Shown: piece after piece, positions 2,036 to 30,009 of the stretch
Layout of the letters: each line of letters begins with the position of its first letter
How positions within the stretch are numbered: the stretch's first letter is position 1
Virus record (IMG/VR): IMGVR_UViG_3300045453_000088
Coordinates: 1 to 31,967 of that record
DNA length: 31,967 bases
Strand: one strand, 5' to 3'
Source of the DNA: a virus
The notes under the pieces: model-generated
What the model was told of the DNA's origin: nothing
Database searches by the model: none
Seen by the model: only the letters and a program-made list of their open reading frames with translations
Made by a program: the position numbers and the translations under genes

Positions 2036-4065
2036 TATACAATCGTCCCCCTTTTATATTTAACATAACCTGTTACCCTTTGAACATAAATCAAAGTTGT
2101 GCTGGTGGCAGCTGTTTGCTCGTTTTCTTCTGTGAAACGATACCTGCTTCCTGCCGTGACGGGTATATAAGTTACGACATCGCTTTGGTACGCATCAACT
2201 ACTGTACTAATAGGACTTCCGCCGCAGAATAAGGCGTTAGTACCTACAGTGGTAGCTGTTAAGTTGCTTCTTGCTGCTGATAGTGCTGTTGGAGTTGAGC
2301 GCACCAAGGAAGTATTATACGCATCAACTACTGCATTAGCAGCACCCATAGCATTAACACCCCCGCCGAACAAGGCGTTAGTACCTACGGTGGTAGCTGT
2401 TAAGCTGTGTCTTGCTGCTGATAGTGCTGTTGGAGTTGAGCGCACCAAGGAAGTATTATACGCATCAACTACTGCACTAGCAGAACCTGTATCACCCCCG
2501 CCGAACAAGGCGTTAGTACCTACAGTGGTAGCTGTTAAGTGGCTTCTTGCTGCTGATAGTGCTGTTGGAGTTGAGCGCACCAAGGAAGTATTATACGCAT
2601 CAACTACTGCACTAACAGCACCTGTAGCACCCCCGCCGAACAAGGCGTTAGTACCTACGGTGGTAGCTGTTAAGCTGTGTCTTGCTGCTGATAGTGCTGT
2701 TGGAGTTGAGCGCACCAAGGAAGTATTATACGCATCAACTACTGCACTAGCAGAACCTGTATCACCCCCGCCGAACAAGGCGTTAGTACCTACAGTGGTA
2801 GCTGTTAAGTGGCTTCTTGCTGCTGATAGTGCTGTTGGAGTTGAGCGCACCAAGGAAGTATTATACGCATCAACTACTGCACTAACAGCACCTGTAGCAC
2901 CCCCGCCGAACAAGGCGTTAGTACCTACGGTGGTAGCTGTTAAGCTGTGTCTTGCTGCTGATAGTGCTGTTGGAGTTGAGCGCACCAAGGAAGTATTATA
3001 CGCATCAACTACTGCACTAGCAGAACCTGTATCACCCCCGCCGAACAAGGCGTTAGTACCTACAGTGGTAGCTGTTAAGCTGTGTCTTGCTGCTGATAGT
3101 TCTGTTGGAGTTGAGCGAATTAAAAACGGGTATGTTTGCGTAGCGTAATTAGTAAAATCTACATGTACCAGACCACCTCCTTCACCCTGTAAGATAAAAT
3201 TTGTACCATTAAACCTCACTGTGTATACGCTATTTGCTGCCAAATCCCCTGACTCCAAGGCTTCTCCGTTAGCTCTCAAGACTGTCCTTGCTCCTAGACT
3301 GTTTATGTTTAGCGTTACTGCTCCTGTGTTTGCAGTTACATTACGAAAAGCTATTGGCAATCCTGCTGTGTACGAAGCTGGCGCAGGCGATACTGTTATT
3401 GTTTTGTCATTAGTACCAGAAGCATCTGCGTACCTTATATGGTGCGTAGCGTCGTTTGCATGGTCATCTACCGTTTGTCGTATAGCAATATCATCTGTTG
3501 CACTTGGCGCAGCCACCTTCGCCCTACCTGCAGCGTCTCGCAATACTATCCTGTTTGCTGTAGCTGCGGATGTTGCGGAATGTGACGAAGTTTCAGCCAA
3601 ATGCGACATAACAGCTGTGGCCACTCCTGAAATTTGTGCCCGTCGTTCCGTAGAGGTAAGCTCTTCAACCTGCTGTCCGGTGCCAACAGACCATAACACT
3701 ATTGAACCTGCCGCAATAATTCCGGTAGTGTTATGACTAAAATTACCATCACTTTGCAGAAACAGATAATATGTTGTTTCTATAGCCGGGTCGGTGATAT
3801 AGTAGGTGGTGTCCTCGGGTATATCAACCATAATTATGGCATTGGAACTATTAATGAATTCTGCACGCCCCGGGCTGATCGTCAGTTCAATCCTATTGTT
3901 TGCTAGGTCGTATGATGCCGATTTTAAGAAAAAAGGTTTATCGGCTTGAGCCTCGGAAGCTGCATTCTTTTCAATGGCGTTAAGTATTTCAAGGAAATTC
4001 TCACGGTTTACTTTTTCAGTGCCCAGTGGCATAGGTATTTTAAGCTTATCTGATAGTTCAGGCAT
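2035..4065 (-). CDS. Tail fibre with seven Kelch-like repeats (receptor-binding protein)
   Basis: The 676-residue product has an N-terminal region of about 150 residues (attachment/baseplate side). A stalk-like middle follows, with TANRIVLRDAAGRAKVAAPS and a beta-rich section. Then come seven tandem units of about 45 residues carrying RSTPTALSAAR, TNALFGGG and VVDAYNTSL. A GGG turn, a V-D-x-Y strand and a conserved Arg are the marks of Kelch beta-propeller blades, and seven blades would close one propeller. A short unique C-terminus follows; in the last blade the GGG is CGG. It is expected to bind a cell-surface sugar or protein. The DNA repeats are nearly exact, so blades have been copied recently. 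It follows tail protein I and precedes a possible assembly factor. Confidence 0.85.
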   Translation of the reverse strand: MPELSDKLKIPMPLGTEKVNRENFLEILNAIEKNAASEAQADKPFFLKSASYDLANNRIELTISPGRAEFINSSNAIIMVDIPEDTTYYITDPAIETTYYLFLQSDGNFSHNTTGIIAAGSIVLWSVGTGQQVEELTSTERRAQISGVATAVMSHLAETSSHSATSAATANRIVLRDAAGRAKVAAPSATDDIAIRQTVDDHANDATHHIRYADASGTNDKTITVSPAPASYTAGLPIAFRNVTANTGAVTLNINSLGARTVLRANGEALESGDLAANSVYTVRFNGTNFILQGEGGGLVHVDFTNYATQTYPFLIRSTPTELSAARHSLTATTVGTNALFGGGDTGSASAVVDAYNTSLVRSTPTALSAARHSLTATTVGTNALFGGGATGAVSAVVDAYNTSLVRSTPTALSAARSHLTATTVGTNALFGGGDTGSASAVVDAYNTSLVRSTPTALSAARHSLTATTVGTNALFGGGATGAVSAVVDAYNTSLVRSTPTALSAARSHLTATTVGTNALFGGGDTGSASAVVDAYNTSLVRSTPTALSAARHSLTATTVGTNALFGGGVNAMGAANAVVDAYNTSLVRSTPTALSAARSNLTATTVGTNALFCGGSPISTVVDAYQSDVVTYIPVTAGSRYRFTEENEQTAATSTTLIYVQRVTGYVKYKRGTIV
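2231..3117 (-). repeat. 135-bp tandem repeat array (exact 270-bp dimers) encoding Kelch blades
   Basis: The marker AAGGCGTTAG recurs at 2231, 2372, 2507, 2642, 2777, 2912 and 3047: one 141-base interval and five of 135. Units alternate between two versions (one coding GDTGSASA, one GATGAVSA), so the true period in 2372-3080 is 270 bases. Within it the copies look base-for-base identical. This indicates a very recent tandem duplication of a two-blade unit. The count could vary between isolates or be miscounted by short-read assembly. Confidence 0.9.
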
Positions 4066-8083: not shown

Positions 8084-10318
8084 TTAAGCTTTATATCTTT
8101 CCAGGAAGCTTTCTAAGTCTCTAGTAAACTGGTCTGCTTCCCTACGGCTTCCGCCATGATAGTGGAGTTCAACCAGTGGGCCTTGCTTGCTTTCCCGCCG
8201 GATTTCCCGTTGGCTAATCTCGGTTTTCTCACGGAAAATCTCACGCAGGCTGATAGATTTCTGTGACCGGCTAAAACCTACTGATGGTGCCTTGTAGCTA
8301 TCAAAGGCGTTTTGAGCATCAACATCAGAAGTATTGAGAGTTAAGAGCATAGATAGTGCAGCTCCGGCCAGAGCTGCTGCAGTAACTTGTTTAAGCAGAC
8401 CGCTGCGCTGGCTAATGCCATTGGCAAAGGTTTCAATCATGGCCCGGCCTGATCGGGTTAATGTAGATAAGGGACCTTCTTTGGCGTCGGAGAAGGGAAG
8501 GAGTCTTCTTAGTTTTACCAAGCCTTTTTCAACAACTTCATAAGGTTTATTGATCAAGCTGGTGACCCCGTCCACAAATGCTTGAATGAGATCAGATCCT
8601 GACTGTCTAAAGTCGGCAATCTTACCCATAAGGAAGTTGTCAAATAGCCGGAATGAGTGCCTAAAAAATTCTAGCCCCAGGATAAACATGAGCTTTAATC
8701 TATCCCAGCCATTGCCTATGCTAGCGGTTACTTTATCCCAGTTTCTCCAGAGCAGGTAGAGCACTGCAATCAATGCAATAATCCCTAAGACGATCCAGGT
8801 AATTGGGTTGGCCAACAAGGCAGCGGTGAATCCCCATACTGAGGCTATTAACCCTGGCAGAGCTGCAACTGCTGTTCTGATGGCCGCAGCGCTCATGCGT
8901 CCTAGGTTAACAGCCATCGTCCTGGCGGTACCGGCACCAGATCTGAGTGCATCCATGGCGTATAGGCTGCGTATTTGTAATGTCATAAAAGCATCTTTCG
9001 CAAAGCTAGCCCCTTTGCTAAGATAAAATAATGACGTAGAAGTATTACCAATTATCCAGCCCATAGCTCCCAGACCAGTAATAACTCCCCCAATGCCGAC
9101 CAGTAGTGCAGATATCGATGCGCCTACATAAAAGATAGTCTTAGCTGCACGTGGGTTTTCTTCTGCTAATTGCATTATTCTCAGTATAAATCCGCTTACA
9201 GCAGTAGTTAGTAAGTTAAAATCATCAGTTAGCAGATTACCAACAGTTTCTTTTAGATTTTGCATTTGCTGGCCAACAATTTCCCATCTAGAACCGGGAT
9301 CAATATTCATCAACTGGGCCATTTCCTCAGTAATCCCCGTGCCACCTTTCATGGCAGTTTGGACACTAAGAACACTATCCCTCAGTAAATCTATCTTGGG
9401 ATAAAGAAGCTCTATTACACGTACAGCTTCTTTGGTACCGAATGCCTTTTCAAGTTCTTGCTTTTGTATAGCATCCAGAGTATCACCATATTTACCCCGG
9501 AGCTTTAACAAGATTTCTTCCATCCCCAATAGCTGATTATTAGCGTCTACAAAGCTTAAGCCTAGTGCATCACCTGCTTTGGCTGCCGATGAGATAAAGG
9601 CAGCATATCTAGTCCCTGATTCGCCCCCTGTCATAGTAGCCTGCAACATCCCTAAGATTGCCAACTGCTCCTCCAGGGGGCGATTTGCACTGGTGGCTGA
9701 AGCTCCAAGGCTGCTTATCGCCTGAGACATTTGAGAACCTGTTGTTTTGAATTGCTGTACCGAAGCCGCTATTCCTCCGGAAAACATTTCTCCAAAAGCG
9801 AAATCACTTAACTGCCCATACATATCCTTGTAGATTCCATACCCAGTTGCAAAAAGACTGGTCATTTCAGCTGTTGTTGATTTCGTTGCCTTTGCCGTCA
9901 AAGCTGCCAACCTGGTGTACTCGGCAACTCCAGCATCGGAGAGGGAAGATATACCTGACTTAATGTCATAGGCAGCGGACAGAAATTGTGATTTTACAGT
10001 TCCTGAGTAGGCATTGCTAAAGTTTGTTGCTGCAGTCTCTAAAGCACTAAAGTCTCGGATACCTACAGAAGCTAACTCACCGATGGCTTTTTGCGATGCA
10101 AATGTAGCTTTAACCGGCATGGCTGCAGCAATGCCTGTTGCAATTCCGGTTGCGACCATCTTGGCGCCGGCACTCATCATTTGATTTGATTTATCGATGA
10201 AAGCCTGCATATTGCCTTCTAGTTGCTTAACTTCTTTCCCGGCTAATCTTGCAGGACCAGACAATCTGTCCACCATTGCCAAGATTACACTTAATTTAAA
10301 AATTGTTTCTAAACTCAC
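8084..10318 (-). CDS. Tail tape measure protein
   Basis: This 744-residue protein is the largest tail protein and sets tail length. Residues 1-300 have the PhageMin-tail/TP901 pattern (helical, Ala/Ser-rich, with SRYAAF-like TRYAAFISSAAKAG). Hydrophobic spans lie at about 400-430 (TIFYVGASISALLVGIGGVI) and 500-530 (NPITWIVLGIIALIAVLYLL). The C-terminus is charged (RREADQFTRDLESFLERYK). The start is GTG at 10316-10318 with GGGAGTGA upstream. The chaperone should lie directly upstream, but a 365-base interval holding a plus-strand gene intervenes. Confidence 0.9.
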   Translation of the reverse strand: MSLETIFKLSVILAMVDRLSGPARLAGKEVKQLEGNMQAFIDKSNQMMSAGAKMVATGIATGIAAAMPVKATFASQKAIGELASVGIRDFSALETAATNFSNAYSGTVKSQFLSAAYDIKSGISSLSDAGVAEYTRLAALTAKATKSTTAEMTSLFATGYGIYKDMYGQLSDFAFGEMFSGGIAASVQQFKTTGSQMSQAISSLGASATSANRPLEEQLAILGMLQATMTGGESGTRYAAFISSAAKAGDALGLSFVDANNQLLGMEEILLKLRGKYGDTLDAIQKQELEKAFGTKEAVRVIELLYPKIDLLRDSVLSVQTAMKGGTGITEEMAQLMNIDPGSRWEIVGQQMQNLKETVGNLLTDDFNLLTTAVSGFILRIMQLAEENPRAAKTIFYVGASISALLVGIGGVITGLGAMGWIIGNTSTSLFYLSKGASFAKDAFMTLQIRSLYAMDALRSGAGTARTMAVNLGRMSAAAIRTAVAALPGLIASVWGFTAALLANPITWIVLGIIALIAVLYLLWRNWDKVTASIGNGWDRLKLMFILGLEFFRHSFRLFDNFLMGKIADFRQSGSDLIQAFVDGVTSLINKPYEVVEKGLVKLRRLLPFSDAKEGPLSTLTRSGRAMIETFANGISQRSGLLKQVTAAALAGAALSMLLTLNTSDVDAQNAFDSYKAPSVGFSRSQKSISLREIFREKTEISQREIRRESKQGPLVELHYHGGSRREADQFTRDLESFLERYKA

Positions 10319-10319
10319 C

Positions 10320-10348
10320 TTGAATCACTCCCAGCCATGGTTTATGAT
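10320..10348 (+). promoter_or_regulatory. Sigma-A type promoter of the reverse-oriented membrane gene
   Basis: TTGAAT (10320-10325) is followed by a 17-base spacer and TATGAT (10343-10348), giving four of six and five of six matches to the -35 and -10 consensus. The next feature downstream is an ideal AAGGAGG site and the ATG at 10374. The -35 overlaps the start region of the tape measure gene on the other strand. Confidence 0.6.
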
Positions 10349-10373
10349 GGTAAATAAGAAGGAGGTCGGTATT

Positions 10374-10643
10374 ATGGAAGAGTTTATCTTGAATTTTTTA
10401 GTCTATAGCATATTTGCAGTGATAATAGGCATCCCGATAATTTTGCTCTTATATGGAACCGGTTTCATTATTCGTTATTTGCTACCAATATTGCTTTTCC
10501 CATTTATGCTACCCTTTGCTTTTTATCTCTCGTGTGAGACACCAAGAATTAAAACAGATAATTTGTCCGGCTGGGATATGCTTAAGAAGATGTTTATTTT
10601 TTATGGTAGACTTCTTACTTGGCGAAGGCCATTCTTACCTTAA
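10374..10643 (+). CDS. Reverse-oriented small membrane protein (candidate moron / exclusion gene)
   Basis: The 89-residue product starts MEEFILNFLVYSIFAVII after AAGGAGGT (7 bases spacing). Two or three hydrophobic spans cover residues 5-28, 32-44 and about 45-52; the C-terminus is basic (FYGRLLTWRRPFLP). No family was recognised. It is the only plus-strand gene in the structural region. It has its own promoter and a strong terminator and sits between the tail chaperone and the tape measure, where phages normally have nothing. These are marks of a moron: an added gene transcribed from the prophage, often for host fitness or superinfection exclusion. The function is not shown by the sequence. 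Confidence 0.75.
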   Translation: MEEFILNFLVYSIFAVIIGIPIILLLYGTGFIIRYLLPILLFPFMLPFAFYLSCETPRIKTDNLSGWDMLKKMFIFYGRLLTWRRPFLP

Positions 10644-10651
10644 CATTTTGG

Positions 10652-10690
10652 AAGCCCTTTCTCCCATAGAGGAGGAAGGGCTTTATTCTT
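10652..10690 (+). terminator. Intrinsic terminator behind the reverse-oriented gene
   Basis: The 13-pair stem (10652-10664 with 10671-10683, one G-T pair) has a 6-base loop and is followed by TATTCTT on the plus strand. The last stem bases contain the stop codon of the frameshifted tail chaperone on the other strand. There is no T-run on the minus side, so late transcription should pass. Confidence 0.75.
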
Positions 10691-11215
10691 CCTCCTTTCC
10701 TCCGCCAAGTGCTTTTACTATAGCTGCAGCCGTAATGTCGACCTCACGTCTTTCATACCATAAAGCCTGGGCGTACAGCTCTGCAAATTCCTCCAGTTCA
10801 AACCCACCTTCTTTACCGAAGTACTTCCAGATCAGCAGGTGGCCGTTAGTGAAGAAATTGTCTTCAATCTCACTGATCCGGCTCTCAACCTGCTCTACAA
10901 CTTTTTTATAGTGACCATGGCATTGACGCCGATTTTGTCATTTAGCTTATCGGTCAATCCAACAACTGCACCAGGATGTTCAACTAAGGTTTGCTCCAGG
11001 GTTTCCCGGTCCCGGTCATCAACCAAGCTGAAGAGGTAATTTCTCATGGCAGCTGTCGGTTTGCTGCTCATTTCTTTGATCATCCTGTCAAAGTGAGTGG
11101 ACTGAGGCTTTTTAAACCTAAACTCCTTTGCACTGATAGAACCATCTTCATTCTCAAGTTCTGCCTTGACTATATACCGCTTTTCATTTTGGATAACTTC
11201 TTTTTCTCCATCCAC
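10683..11215 (-). CDS. Tail assembly chaperone, -1 frameshift product (177 aa)
   Basis: This would be the long form of the tail chaperone that coats the tape measure before tube assembly. Translation in frame 0 runs from GTG 11215 to the slippery heptamer A AAA AAG (plus-strand 10901-10907, in codons ATA AAA AAG), just before the frame-0 end TTG TAG. After a -1 slip the frame stays open for 72 residues (VVEQVESRISEIEDNFF..., ending LGGGKEEE) to TAA 10683-10685. The downstream part is helical and acidic and has no good start of its own. The position before the tape measure matches gpG/gpGT-type chaperones. The frameshift is inferred from motif and frame. Confidence 0.75.
10895..11215 (-). CDS. 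Tail assembly chaperone, frame-0 product (106 aa)
   Basis: This is the short form of the tail chaperone. It starts at GTG with AGGAGGTTACAATT in front. The protein contains KRYIVKAELENEDGSISAKEF, split as a beta strand pair, then KEMSSKPTAAMRNYLFSLVDD and a C-terminal helix region. The pattern of a YxxKAEL strand followed by a helical domain is typical of tail chaperones of Bacillota contractile phages (XkdN-like role). It ends in ATA AAA AAG TTG TAG, where the first three codons form the slippery site. Confidence 0.75.
   Translation of the reverse strand: MDGEKEVIQNEKRYIVKAELENEDGSISAKEFRFKKPQSTHFDRMIKEMSSKPTAAMRNYLFSLVDDRDRETLEQTLVEHPGAVVGLTDKLNDKIGVNAMVTIKKL
10901..10907 (-). promoter_or_regulatory. 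-1 ribosomal frameshift slippery site A AAA AAG
   Basis: On the minus strand the heptamer AAAAAAG is in the NNX XXY YYZ phase (ATA AAA AAG), two codons before the stop TAG. It is the same heptamer as the well-known dnaX site. The -1 frame is open for 72 codons beyond it. Confidence 0.75.
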
Positions 11216-27909: not shown

Positions 27910-30009
27910 TTAATTCTCATTGCCTACTCGGCGAAGATAATCGTCAAATCTGTTGCTATTAACCACTTTTTTAGTTTCGGTTTGAATCTTTTCAGCTTGC
28001 TTTGCTTTAGATGTTCTCTCCATGCCGGTGATCATTCTCATGTCTCCAGGAACTTGAACATTTTTACCAGTGGTCATTACCGGACCATGTTCCTGGCGTT
28101 CATTTACTATTTCTTCTAAGCTAACTTCCTGATAGCCACGCAATCTTTCCTTTAGCTCTTTTTTGCGTGTGGCGCGTTTTTTAAGGAATTGCTTAATATC
28201 GTCTTTTGAAGCATCCCAGTCCATCAATTCTTTGTTTGTTGCTGTGCAGATGTAATTGCCGTTCTTTGGATTGAATATTAATAACTCACCAATTCGATTT
28301 GGATCGTATCGAATGACCAAACTTTGCCCTACATATTTTTCAAGCAACGGGTGGCTGTACCACCGGCGCTGGCTTTGGGTACCAAATCGCTGGATGCCGG
28401 TTGCGGTAACCTTGGCCTTTTCCACATCCATCAGGCAGATATCCAGCGTCCGATCGTCAGGCATTTCCTTTCGGGCTTTAGGTGTCATTTGATACTTTTC
28501 ATAAGGCGTCATGCCTAAAGTGCTATGAACAAAATTATGATATTGATATATATACATCTCTAAAAGCAGACAGGCTTCTTCCAGTAAGAGCAGTTCTCCA
28601 CGGTCACACATCACTTTTTCATCAAGTCCAAATGGTCGGTCTTTATTGTCACTTCCGCAATACCCAGGAATGTAGCGTGAGAATTGGTCTGTCATGGTGC
28701 CAAACCAGCGTTCTGCATGTCCTTTGGCCCAAGGAGAATACTTGGTGCAAAACTTAGCTTCAATATTTAACAATTCGCATGAGCTGCGTACTTCTTTTGA
28801 ATACTCCCAATCATCTGCTTTAATACCCTTACGTACTTTGGCCTTATAATCTTCGCCGTTATCGATATATAAAGTCTTGGGCAGTCCGTAATCAGGCAGC
28901 TTCTGACCGGCGCATTCTTTAAACATTTCTAAATCCCACCCAAGAGATTGTAGAGAGTTAGCCATAGCTTTACTCATATGACTATCTAGTCCAGCGGGCA
29001 TCTTTTTAGCCAGAATTCCGTGTCGAAGTGCTAATGCAATAGTTCTACCATTTGCCTGGATACTTAACGACCATCCAGTGATCACTCTTGAAGCAACATC
29101 TTCCCATACTGTTAACCATGGCCGGTGCGGCTTGCCTTTGTAACTGATGAAGAAGTCCATACGGTGGTGGTCACCTTCCCACACCTGGTTTACAAATTCC
29201 GGTTCCTTTCTAAGGACTTTTTCTGCAAATCGTTTCATGTATTCTTCTTCACCTTCCCTAGCCAAACACACTAGGTCTGATTCATATCTTTTTAGATCGT
29301 CTATAACCCGGTAGGTGGTCGCTCTACTAGGAATATCAAAACCATTCAGCTTGCAGAATTTTTCAACCCGCTTATGCACATGAGATACTTTTGGTTGGTT
29401 GCGCTTCAGGTATTCAGCCCTGGCAAACCGTTCAACTTCTTCAGTGACCGACCGGCGCACTGTGCCGGTGCCTAAAGTTGGCGTACGTTTCATTAATGCT
29501 GCAATTCCTCCTTCCTGATAAAGTTCTACTCTGCGGTAGAGCGTCTTGAGAGAAATACTATGTCGCCTTGCAATAATCTTTGCTTTTACAGTTTTGCCGG
29601 TACAGTCCCCCAAGTCTAAATACTCTAGTACCGGCTTAGCCTTTTCATCAGCTTCTTCAAGCAACTGGTTAAATCTCTGGTCTCCAACGAGAGCTTTCAC
29701 CTCTGCCAAATTGAGACTTTTTGTTATACCGGACGTAGGTTCTTCGATTGAATCCGGCTCATTTATTACTTCTTCAGTAACAGCAACATCTTCAACAGCG
29801 TTTTGTTCGTACCATCGGCGGCGGGCTATAGTGGAGAGAGAAGATAGTGCAACGAGATATCCGCTGCCACCATTCCCGCCACGACCAATTTTTTCTTTCT
29901 TTACATCCCAATCTCCGCCGTAAACCTTATTGAGTGCCGCCTGTCTTGAGACGCCTTCAAGGGCAGCAGCCTGGCTTGTTGTTAACCAAATCTCTTTCAT
30001 CAATTGCAC
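27910..30009 (-). CDS. MuA-like transposase (DDE)
   Basis: The 699-residue product cuts and joins the phage ends. Residues 4-65 are the Mu N-terminal winged helix (IWLTTSQAAALEGVSRQAAL). Helix-turn-helix regions for end binding follow (about 130-240, with ARRHSISLKTLYRRV). The RNase H-like core has D280 (WEGDHH), D383 (YIDNGEDY) and E433 (GHAERWFG). The Mu-type C-terminal barrel is at about 535-620 (YSHPLLEKYVGQSLVIRYDP), followed by a basic tail that contacts MuB. The start is GTG with GGTGGTGA eight bases upstream. The first 12 codons and leader are duplicated at 31587-31638. Confidence 0.92.
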   Translation of the reverse strand: MQLMKEIWLTTSQAAALEGVSRQAALNKVYGGDWDVKKEKIGRGGNGGSGYLVALSSLSTIARRRWYEQNAVEDVAVTEEVINEPDSIEEPTSGITKSLNLAEVKALVGDQRFNQLLEEADEKAKPVLEYLDLGDCTGKTVKAKIIARRHSISLKTLYRRVELYQEGGIAALMKRTPTLGTGTVRRSVTEEVERFARAEYLKRNQPKVSHVHKRVEKFCKLNGFDIPSRATTYRVIDDLKRYESDLVCLAREGEEEYMKRFAEKVLRKEPEFVNQVWEGDHHRMDFFISYKGKPHRPWLTVWEDVASRVITGWSLSIQANGRTIALALRHGILAKKMPAGLDSHMSKAMANSLQSLGWDLEMFKECAGQKLPDYGLPKTLYIDNGEDYKAKVRKGIKADDWEYSKEVRSSCELLNIEAKFCTKYSPWAKGHAERWFGTMTDQFSRYIPGYCGSDNKDRPFGLDEKVMCDRGELLLLEEACLLLEMYIYQYHNFVHSTLGMTPYEKYQMTPKARKEMPDDRTLDICLMDVEKAKVTATGIQRFGTQSQRRWYSHPLLEKYVGQSLVIRYDPNRIGELLIFNPKNGNYICTATNKELMDWDASKDDIKQFLKKRATRKKELKERLRGYQEVSLEEIVNERQEHGPVMTTGKNVQVPGDMRMITGMERTSKAKQAEKIQTETKKVVNSNRFDDYLRRVGNEN

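What the first reader, a model, noticed from the sequence alone, without database searches (positions are those of the whole stretch)
10320..10690. Reverse-oriented self-contained gene inside the tail operon (moron-like)
Promoter TTGAAT-N17-TATGAT, ribosome site AAGGAGGT, an 89-residue membrane protein and a 13-pair terminator form a complete plus-strand cassette between tail chaperone and tape measure. Such cassettes often carry superinfection exclusion or host-modifying functions, and this protein has no recognised family.
Basis: partly seen in the sequence, partly recalled or inferred. Interest (0 to 1): 0.7.

Follow-up and report, generated by a model that had tools for sequence, protein, structure and literature searches.

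The report
Hidden antisense membrane-protein gene in phages
Inside the tail-building gene block of a family of dormant viruses of bacteria there is a small, backwards-running gene for a membrane protein; it has its own start and stop signals, is kept in the same spot across many relatives, appears in none of the protein-family databases searched, and may shield the infected cell against rival viruses.

Summary
[quoted passage not shown] It is not a one-off moron. Of 131 distinct TMP loci, 47 carry a homologous antisense gene ("family A", 46 distinct proteins), two unrelated groups of antisense small membrane proteins (B, 15; C, 7) fill the same slot, and 62 have none. Family A is under purifying selection (median dN/dS 0.15). 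Its start codon lies 53-99 bp from the TMP start. It has an extended -10 promoter (34/44, 3.6 expected) and an intrinsic terminator, usually folding over the stop codon (41/44, 1.7 expected). Loci without a gene show no promoter signal; sister phages differ by a clean ~260-bp block. It evolves with the tail genes. No Pfam, NCBIfam, PHROG or PADLOC family matches. Best reading: a lysogen-expressed membrane gene, probably superinfection exclusion at the TMP/membrane step of DNA entry, working like HK97 gp15, which occupies the same slot in sense orientation. Expression and exclusion are inferred, not shown.

The parts
10320..10348 (+). sigma-70/A type promoter of the antisense gene (TTGAAT-N17-TATGAT), lying over the complement of the tape measure ribosome site
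   Evidence: nearest relative L021 has the same -35 and spacing with TATAAT; promoter signal enriched in groups A, B and C and absent in 62 gene-less loci
10359..10366 (+). Shine-Dalgarno AAGGAGGT, 7 nt before ATG
   Evidence: SD in nearly every family member
10374..10643 (+). 89-aa membrane protein of family A: 1-2 TM helices, positively charged C-terminal amphipathic helix ending LLTWRRPFLP
10651..10684 (+). intrinsic terminator hairpin (14 pairs, T-rich tail)
8084..10318 (-). tape measure protein, next tail gene and proposed functional partner
   Evidence: PHROG 28, E 5e-75
10895..11215 (-). tail assembly chaperone, first frame (a -1 frameshift at AAAAAAG would extend it to a stop at 10683-10685, by sequence reading)
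   Evidence: Pfam Phage_TAC_10 and DUF6848; PHROG 20303
27910..30009 (-). MuA-type transposase, identifies the phage as Mu-like
   Evidence: Pfam Mu-transpos_C, HTH_Tnp_Mu_2

Best explanation
The cassette is a conserved antisense gene for a small cytoplasmic-membrane protein, transcribed by host RNA polymerase from its own sigma-A type promoter in the otherwise silent tail region of the prophage, and stopped by its own terminator before it runs into the chaperone gene. [Gene, selection, promoter and terminator: shown by comparison. Transcription in the lysogen: inferred.] The protein sits in the membrane by one or two helices with a positively charged amphipathic C-terminal helix on the cytoplasmic side [inferred from sequence and model]. 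Its most likely job is superinfection exclusion: in the lysogen it interferes with the step at which an incoming related phage's tape measure protein opens the way for DNA through the membrane [inferred from location beside the TMP gene, membrane nature, antisense lysogenic-type expression, and the parallel with HK97 gp15 and TP-J34 Ltp].
For: Real gene: 46 distinct homologues, always on the strand opposite the tail operon; dN/dS median 0.15. Window protein to Pelotomaculum homologue E 2e-14, which joins the family at 7e-7 in a model built without it. Own control signals: extended -10 in 34 of 44 (3.6 expected); promoter scores above shuffles in groups A, B and C but not in 62 gene-less loci; terminator in 41 of 44 (1.7 expected), its stem usually made of the last codons and stop. 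Slot: searching with the small protein alone, every copy lies 46-118 bp from a TMP start except relics in one genome. Three groups of antisense membrane proteins without detectable mutual homology fill the same slot, which argues that a membrane protein expressed there is what is selected. Topology: net charge near 0 before and about +6 after the hydrophobic stretch, C more positive in 43 of 44. HK97 gp15, an exclusion protein, lies between chaperone and TMP; exclusion by gp15 and by Ltp is overcome by changing tail genes including the TMP (PMC10883804).
Against: No expression or exclusion data. No sequence similarity to HK97 gp15 or Imm_superinfect, and no PADLOC match. The protein's divergence tracks sheath and tube as well as TMP, so there is no TMP-specific co-evolution. 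Known exclusion proteins tend to be variable and sporadic; this one is conserved and slowly evolving, which would also fit a function for the phage or the host. Contractile Mu-like phages may cross the membrane differently from the siphophages in which TMP-directed exclusion is known.
Confidence: 0.5

Rival explanations
1. Lysogenic conversion gene with another target: the small membrane protein is expressed from the prophage and alters a host envelope process (transporter, cell wall, stress), helping the lysogen; the position beside the TMP is only a tolerated landing site.
For: Strong conservation and own promoter and terminator; one genome keeps two intact tandem copies with promoters in a decayed prophage that has lost its TMP (L248).
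Against: Three unrelated groups at one and the same slot and no copies elsewhere in 27 genomes apart from relics suggest a link with the tail genes.
Confidence: 0.2
2. Cis-acting control of the tail operon: the antisense promoter and the hairpin pause or attenuate late transcription so that less tape measure protein than tube or chaperone is made; the ORF is secondary.
For: In 23 of 44 members the hairpin also reads as a terminator on the late strand; it sits just before the TMP gene.
Against: Purifying selection acts on the protein; the window's own hairpin has no T-run on the late strand; by anatomy the antisense RNA covers only the interval between chaperone and TMP and neither coding region; phages without the cassette lack both the promoter signal and the block.
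Confidence: 0.1
3. Assembly blocker or helper: the protein binds tape measure protein (its own or an invader's) during tail assembly, like Pseudomonas Tab, rather than at entry.
For: Tab is a small prophage-expressed protein whose activity depends on the TMP (PMC10884400); location beside chaperone and TMP.
Against: Tab lies between terminase genes in its own phage (PMC10884400); the present protein looks like an integral membrane protein, an odd place for blocking cytoplasmic assembly; no partner like anti-Tab was looked for.
Confidence: 0.1
4. Lysis-related membrane protein (holin or antiholin) expressed in antisense.
For: Small size with 1-2 TM segments; very weak sub-threshold holin matches.
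Against: Late lysis genes would be on the late strand; all matches are far below the cut-offs; a conserved host-type promoter implies expression outside the late programme.
Confidence: 0.05

Closest known systems
HK97 gp15 superinfection-exclusion moron
   Same: Small membrane protein gene placed between the frameshifted tail chaperone and the tape measure gene, terminator annotated behind it; prophage-expressed exclusion escaped by hybrids with other tail tube and TMP genes (PMC10883804).
   Different: gp15 runs in the same direction as the tail genes, has 62 aa, no detectable sequence similarity, and belongs to a lambdoid siphophage; a mosaic addition rather than fixed across a lineage.
TP-J34 Ltp and Tuc2009 Sie2009 exclusion proteins
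   Same: Prophage-expressed membrane-associated proteins that block DNA injection; the TMP is the known target of Ltp (PMC3952083, PMC10883804).
   Different: Ltp is a lipoprotein encoded in the lysogeny module; different location and sequence type.
Fc02 olg1 (B3-like transposable phage)
   Same: Small exclusion gene of a Mu-like phage transcribed in the lysogen, on the strand opposite lytic genes (PMC9936078).
   Different: Lies upstream of the repressor, not in the tail operon; overlaps a lytic gene.
Tab (phage JBD26)
   Same: Short moron of 83 aa expressed from the prophage, activity linked to TMP (PMC10884400).
   Different: Between terminase genes; blocks tail assembly.

Membership tests
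Moron (phage accessory cassette) | own promoter and own terminator around a single ORF | tested here: met
Moron (phage accessory cassette) | present in one phage, cleanly absent between the same two genes in a relative | tested here: met
   L143 305 bp against L167 46 bp; FP_Mushu 60 bp
Moron (phage accessory cassette) | deviating base composition | tested here: met
   G+C 0.35 against about 0.45
Moron (phage accessory cassette) | sporadic, mobile, evolving independently of neighbours | tested here: not met
   Clustered on the TMP tree, co-evolves with tail genes, one slot only
Moron (phage accessory cassette) | transcribed in the lysogen | not testable with these tools
   no RNA data
HK97 gp15 family | sequence homology to gp15 | tested here: not met
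   hhalign probability 11%, 7 columns
HK97 gp15 family | slot between tail chaperone and TMP | tested here: met
   and window map
HK97 gp15 family | same transcriptional direction as tail genes | tested here: not met
   antisense in all copies
Superinfection exclusion protein (function) | blocks infection of a cell expressing it | not testable with these tools
   needs a plating assay
Imm_superinfect (PF14373) | match to the profile | tested here: not met
Known anti-phage systems (PADLOC-DB) | match to any model | tested here: not met
   0 of 38 members

The most novel reading that the evidence does not exclude
The interval between tail chaperone and tape measure is a dedicated, long-conserved antisense 'lysogeny window' in the tail operon of transposable myophages: unrelated membrane proteins, each with its own antisense promoter set against the TMP start, have replaced one another there, forming TMP-linked immunity modules that travel with the entry protein they guard against.
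Probability: 0.35. Interest if true: 0.8.

Novelty: new variant of a known kind. Interest (0 to 1): 0.62.

Why it matters
It adds a protein family that Pfam, NCBIfam, PHROGs and PADLOC do not hold, in Mu-like prophages of many Bacillota, and shows that part of the 'silent' structural region of these prophages is built to be transcribed in the opposite direction. If the exclusion reading is right, the gene is physically tied to the tape measure gene whose product it would act on, which makes the idea that entry proteins and immunity to them are inherited together directly testable by comparing phages of different TMP types.

Tried and rejected
Chance ORF: rejected by homologues, dN/dS and conserved signals. 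Direct similarity to named families: nothing in Pfam, PHROGs, NCBIfam or PADLOC, nothing in phage or plasmid records by tblastn, no fold match in the PDB for a mostly two-helix model. One homologous superfamily across groups A, B and C: not supported (hhalign probabilities 33, 0.6 and 2 percent; the A-C value is not nil). TMP-specific co-evolution: not seen, tube and sheath correlate as well. Search of 113 genomes of the class of Desulforamulus: only the two known prophage copies. The full alignment A2 was too divergent for a pattern scan and was replaced by A3. The first terminator scan started at the stop codon and missed stems made of the last codons, corrected. T4 imm was looked for at the wrong place in T4 and not pursued. 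The HK97 gp15 paper itself is not in the library, so its content is taken from papers that cite it.

Full report
What is there. The window is most of a Mu-like myophage: MuA-type transposase and an AAA ATPase at the right, then terminase, portal, protease, capsid, sheath, tube, chaperone and tape measure (TMP) towards the left, all on the minus strand. Between the chaperone and the TMP a plus-strand cassette holds TTGAAT-N17-TATGAT (10320-10348), AAGGAGGT (10359-10366), an 89-residue ORF (10374-10643) and a 14-pair hairpin with a T-rich tail (10651-10684). In this sequence alone the promoter and terminator are no better than chance, so the case rests on relatives.

Relatives. The TMP and its N-terminus were used to collect loci from viral contigs and genomes, with a few more from the tube protein. 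An iterated profile search of the region in front of the TMP found one coherent family ('A'): 64 copies, 46 distinct proteins, all antisense to the tail genes, start codons 53-99 bp from the TMP start, nearly all with a Shine-Dalgarno. Hosts named in the genome records include Pelotomaculum, Desulforamulus, Thermincola, Paenibacillus, Ruminiclostridium, Lutispora, Maledivibacter and Clostridium. The window protein is a divergent member: 42% identical over 66 aa to the Pelotomaculum one (E 2e-14), which joins the family at 7e-7 in a model that leaves out these close relatives; the window protein itself scores only 0.013 in that model. Two searches with the small protein instead of the TMP gave the same picture: in 27 whole genomes and in viral contigs every copy lies 46-118 bp from a TMP start in antisense, except a tandem pair and a fragment in one genome where no TMP is left (and a further short fragment beside a damaged TMP). 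No copies were found in phage or plasmid records.

It is a gene with its own signals. Synonymous changes exceed replacements: dN/dS median 0.15 over 112 pairs, mostly 0.03-0.17 for the closest pairs; one very close pair with few changes (L073/L076) gives 0.83. An extended -10 (TGnTAnnnT) occurs upstream in 34 of 44 distinct members against 3.6 expected (mononucleotide shuffles), and the best -35/-10 score beats dinucleotide shuffles (P 5e-8, members not independent). The 62 distinct loci that have no gene show no such signal in the same window (6.71 against 6.76 in shuffles), whereas groups A, B and C all do. A terminator on the antisense strand is found in 41 of 44 against 1.7 expected; in most members the 5' arm is made of the last codons (AAACCGACCTTT-TAA...AGGTCGGTTTTTT), so part of the conserved KPTF C-terminus doubles as a hairpin. 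In the window and four others the hairpin follows the stop codon.

Other occupants of the slot. In Desulfotomaculum-type phages (group C, 7) and in phages of Desulfobacterota and others (group B, 15) different antisense membrane ORFs sit at the same place, with TTGACA-like boxes beside the TMP start codon; six of the seven in group C also have terminators over the stop codon, and group B has its -10 only about 6-7 nt before the ATG in several cases, as in leaderless genes. Both show fewer replacement than synonymous changes (89 of 91 and 21 of 21 pairs). Profile comparison does not join the groups. Groups B and C were picked by eye from the ORF lists, so their counts are approximate and their selection could favour hydrophobic ORFs; the promoter and pN/pS results are the check on that. 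Under a stricter automatic rule (good SD, hydrophobic) only 6 of 91 non-family loci qualify, against a background rate of 0.6%.

Evolution. On a TMP tree of 131 distinct sequences (A 47, B 15, C 7, none 62) the states need 14 changes against 56 in shuffles (FastTree). Distances of the small protein follow sheath, tube and TMP alike (0.79-0.88): it is inherited with the tail genes. It is lost, or was never gained, in many gut Lachnospiraceae and Oscillospiraceae phages, and sister phages differ by a clean block (305 against 46 bp). This is moron anatomy without moron mobility.

Mechanism. An antisense gene cannot be served by the late promoters, so a conserved host-type promoter points to expression in the prophage; the terminator keeps the transcript out of the chaperone gene. 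The protein has one or two membrane helices and a C-terminus with a net charge of about +6 (model helices 2-54 and 66-81, mean pLDDT 81, pTM 0.48). The closest parallel is HK97 gp15 in the very same slot but in sense orientation; gp15 and Ltp exclusion are escaped by changes in tail genes including the TMP (PMC10883804), and the TMP is contacted by other membrane defences such as SNIPE (PMC13190303). I therefore favour superinfection exclusion at DNA entry (0.5), with lysogenic conversion, cis control of the operon, and an assembly effect as rivals. Lysogen transcription, membrane topology and exclusion are all inferred.

Noticed in passing
L002, L003, L004, L005, L006, L067, L173: within about 450 bp upstream of the TMP start: Group C: antisense ORFs of 68-123 aa ('GIGxxLG') with TTGACA promoters; six of seven have a terminator over the stop codon; no homology to family A detected.
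   Followed up: partly
L007, L009, L013, L015, L048, L057, L063, L140, L178, L180: start codon about 28-47 bp before the TMP start: Group B: antisense 38-59 aa single-TM ORFs ('METLLGI') whose -10 lies only about 6-7 nt before ATG, as if the mRNA were leaderless; -35 TTGAC touches the TMP start codon.
   Followed up: partly
L150, L042, L030 and most family A loci, last codons of the small gene: The terminator stem is built from the last codons plus stop, so protein and RNA constraints overlap; in about half the members the hairpin also looks like a terminator on the late (tail) strand, just before the TMP gene.
   Followed up: partly
L248:5188-5952 (minus strand): A decayed Mu-like prophage in Ruminococcaceae bacterium D5 keeps two intact tandem copies of the small gene with promoters beside a chaperone remnant, while the TMP gene is gone; L249 holds a broken copy.
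   Followed up: partly
L038/L130 about 3547-3969: The Paenibacillus alvei copy is split over several frames: a decayed family A gene beside a TMP frame that is open over its N-terminal part.
   Followed up: no
window 10683-10911 (minus strand): The chaperone has AAAAAAG followed by an overlapping -1 frame with a typical chaperone-extension end (ALGGGKEEE), the usual frameshift pair.
   Followed up: no
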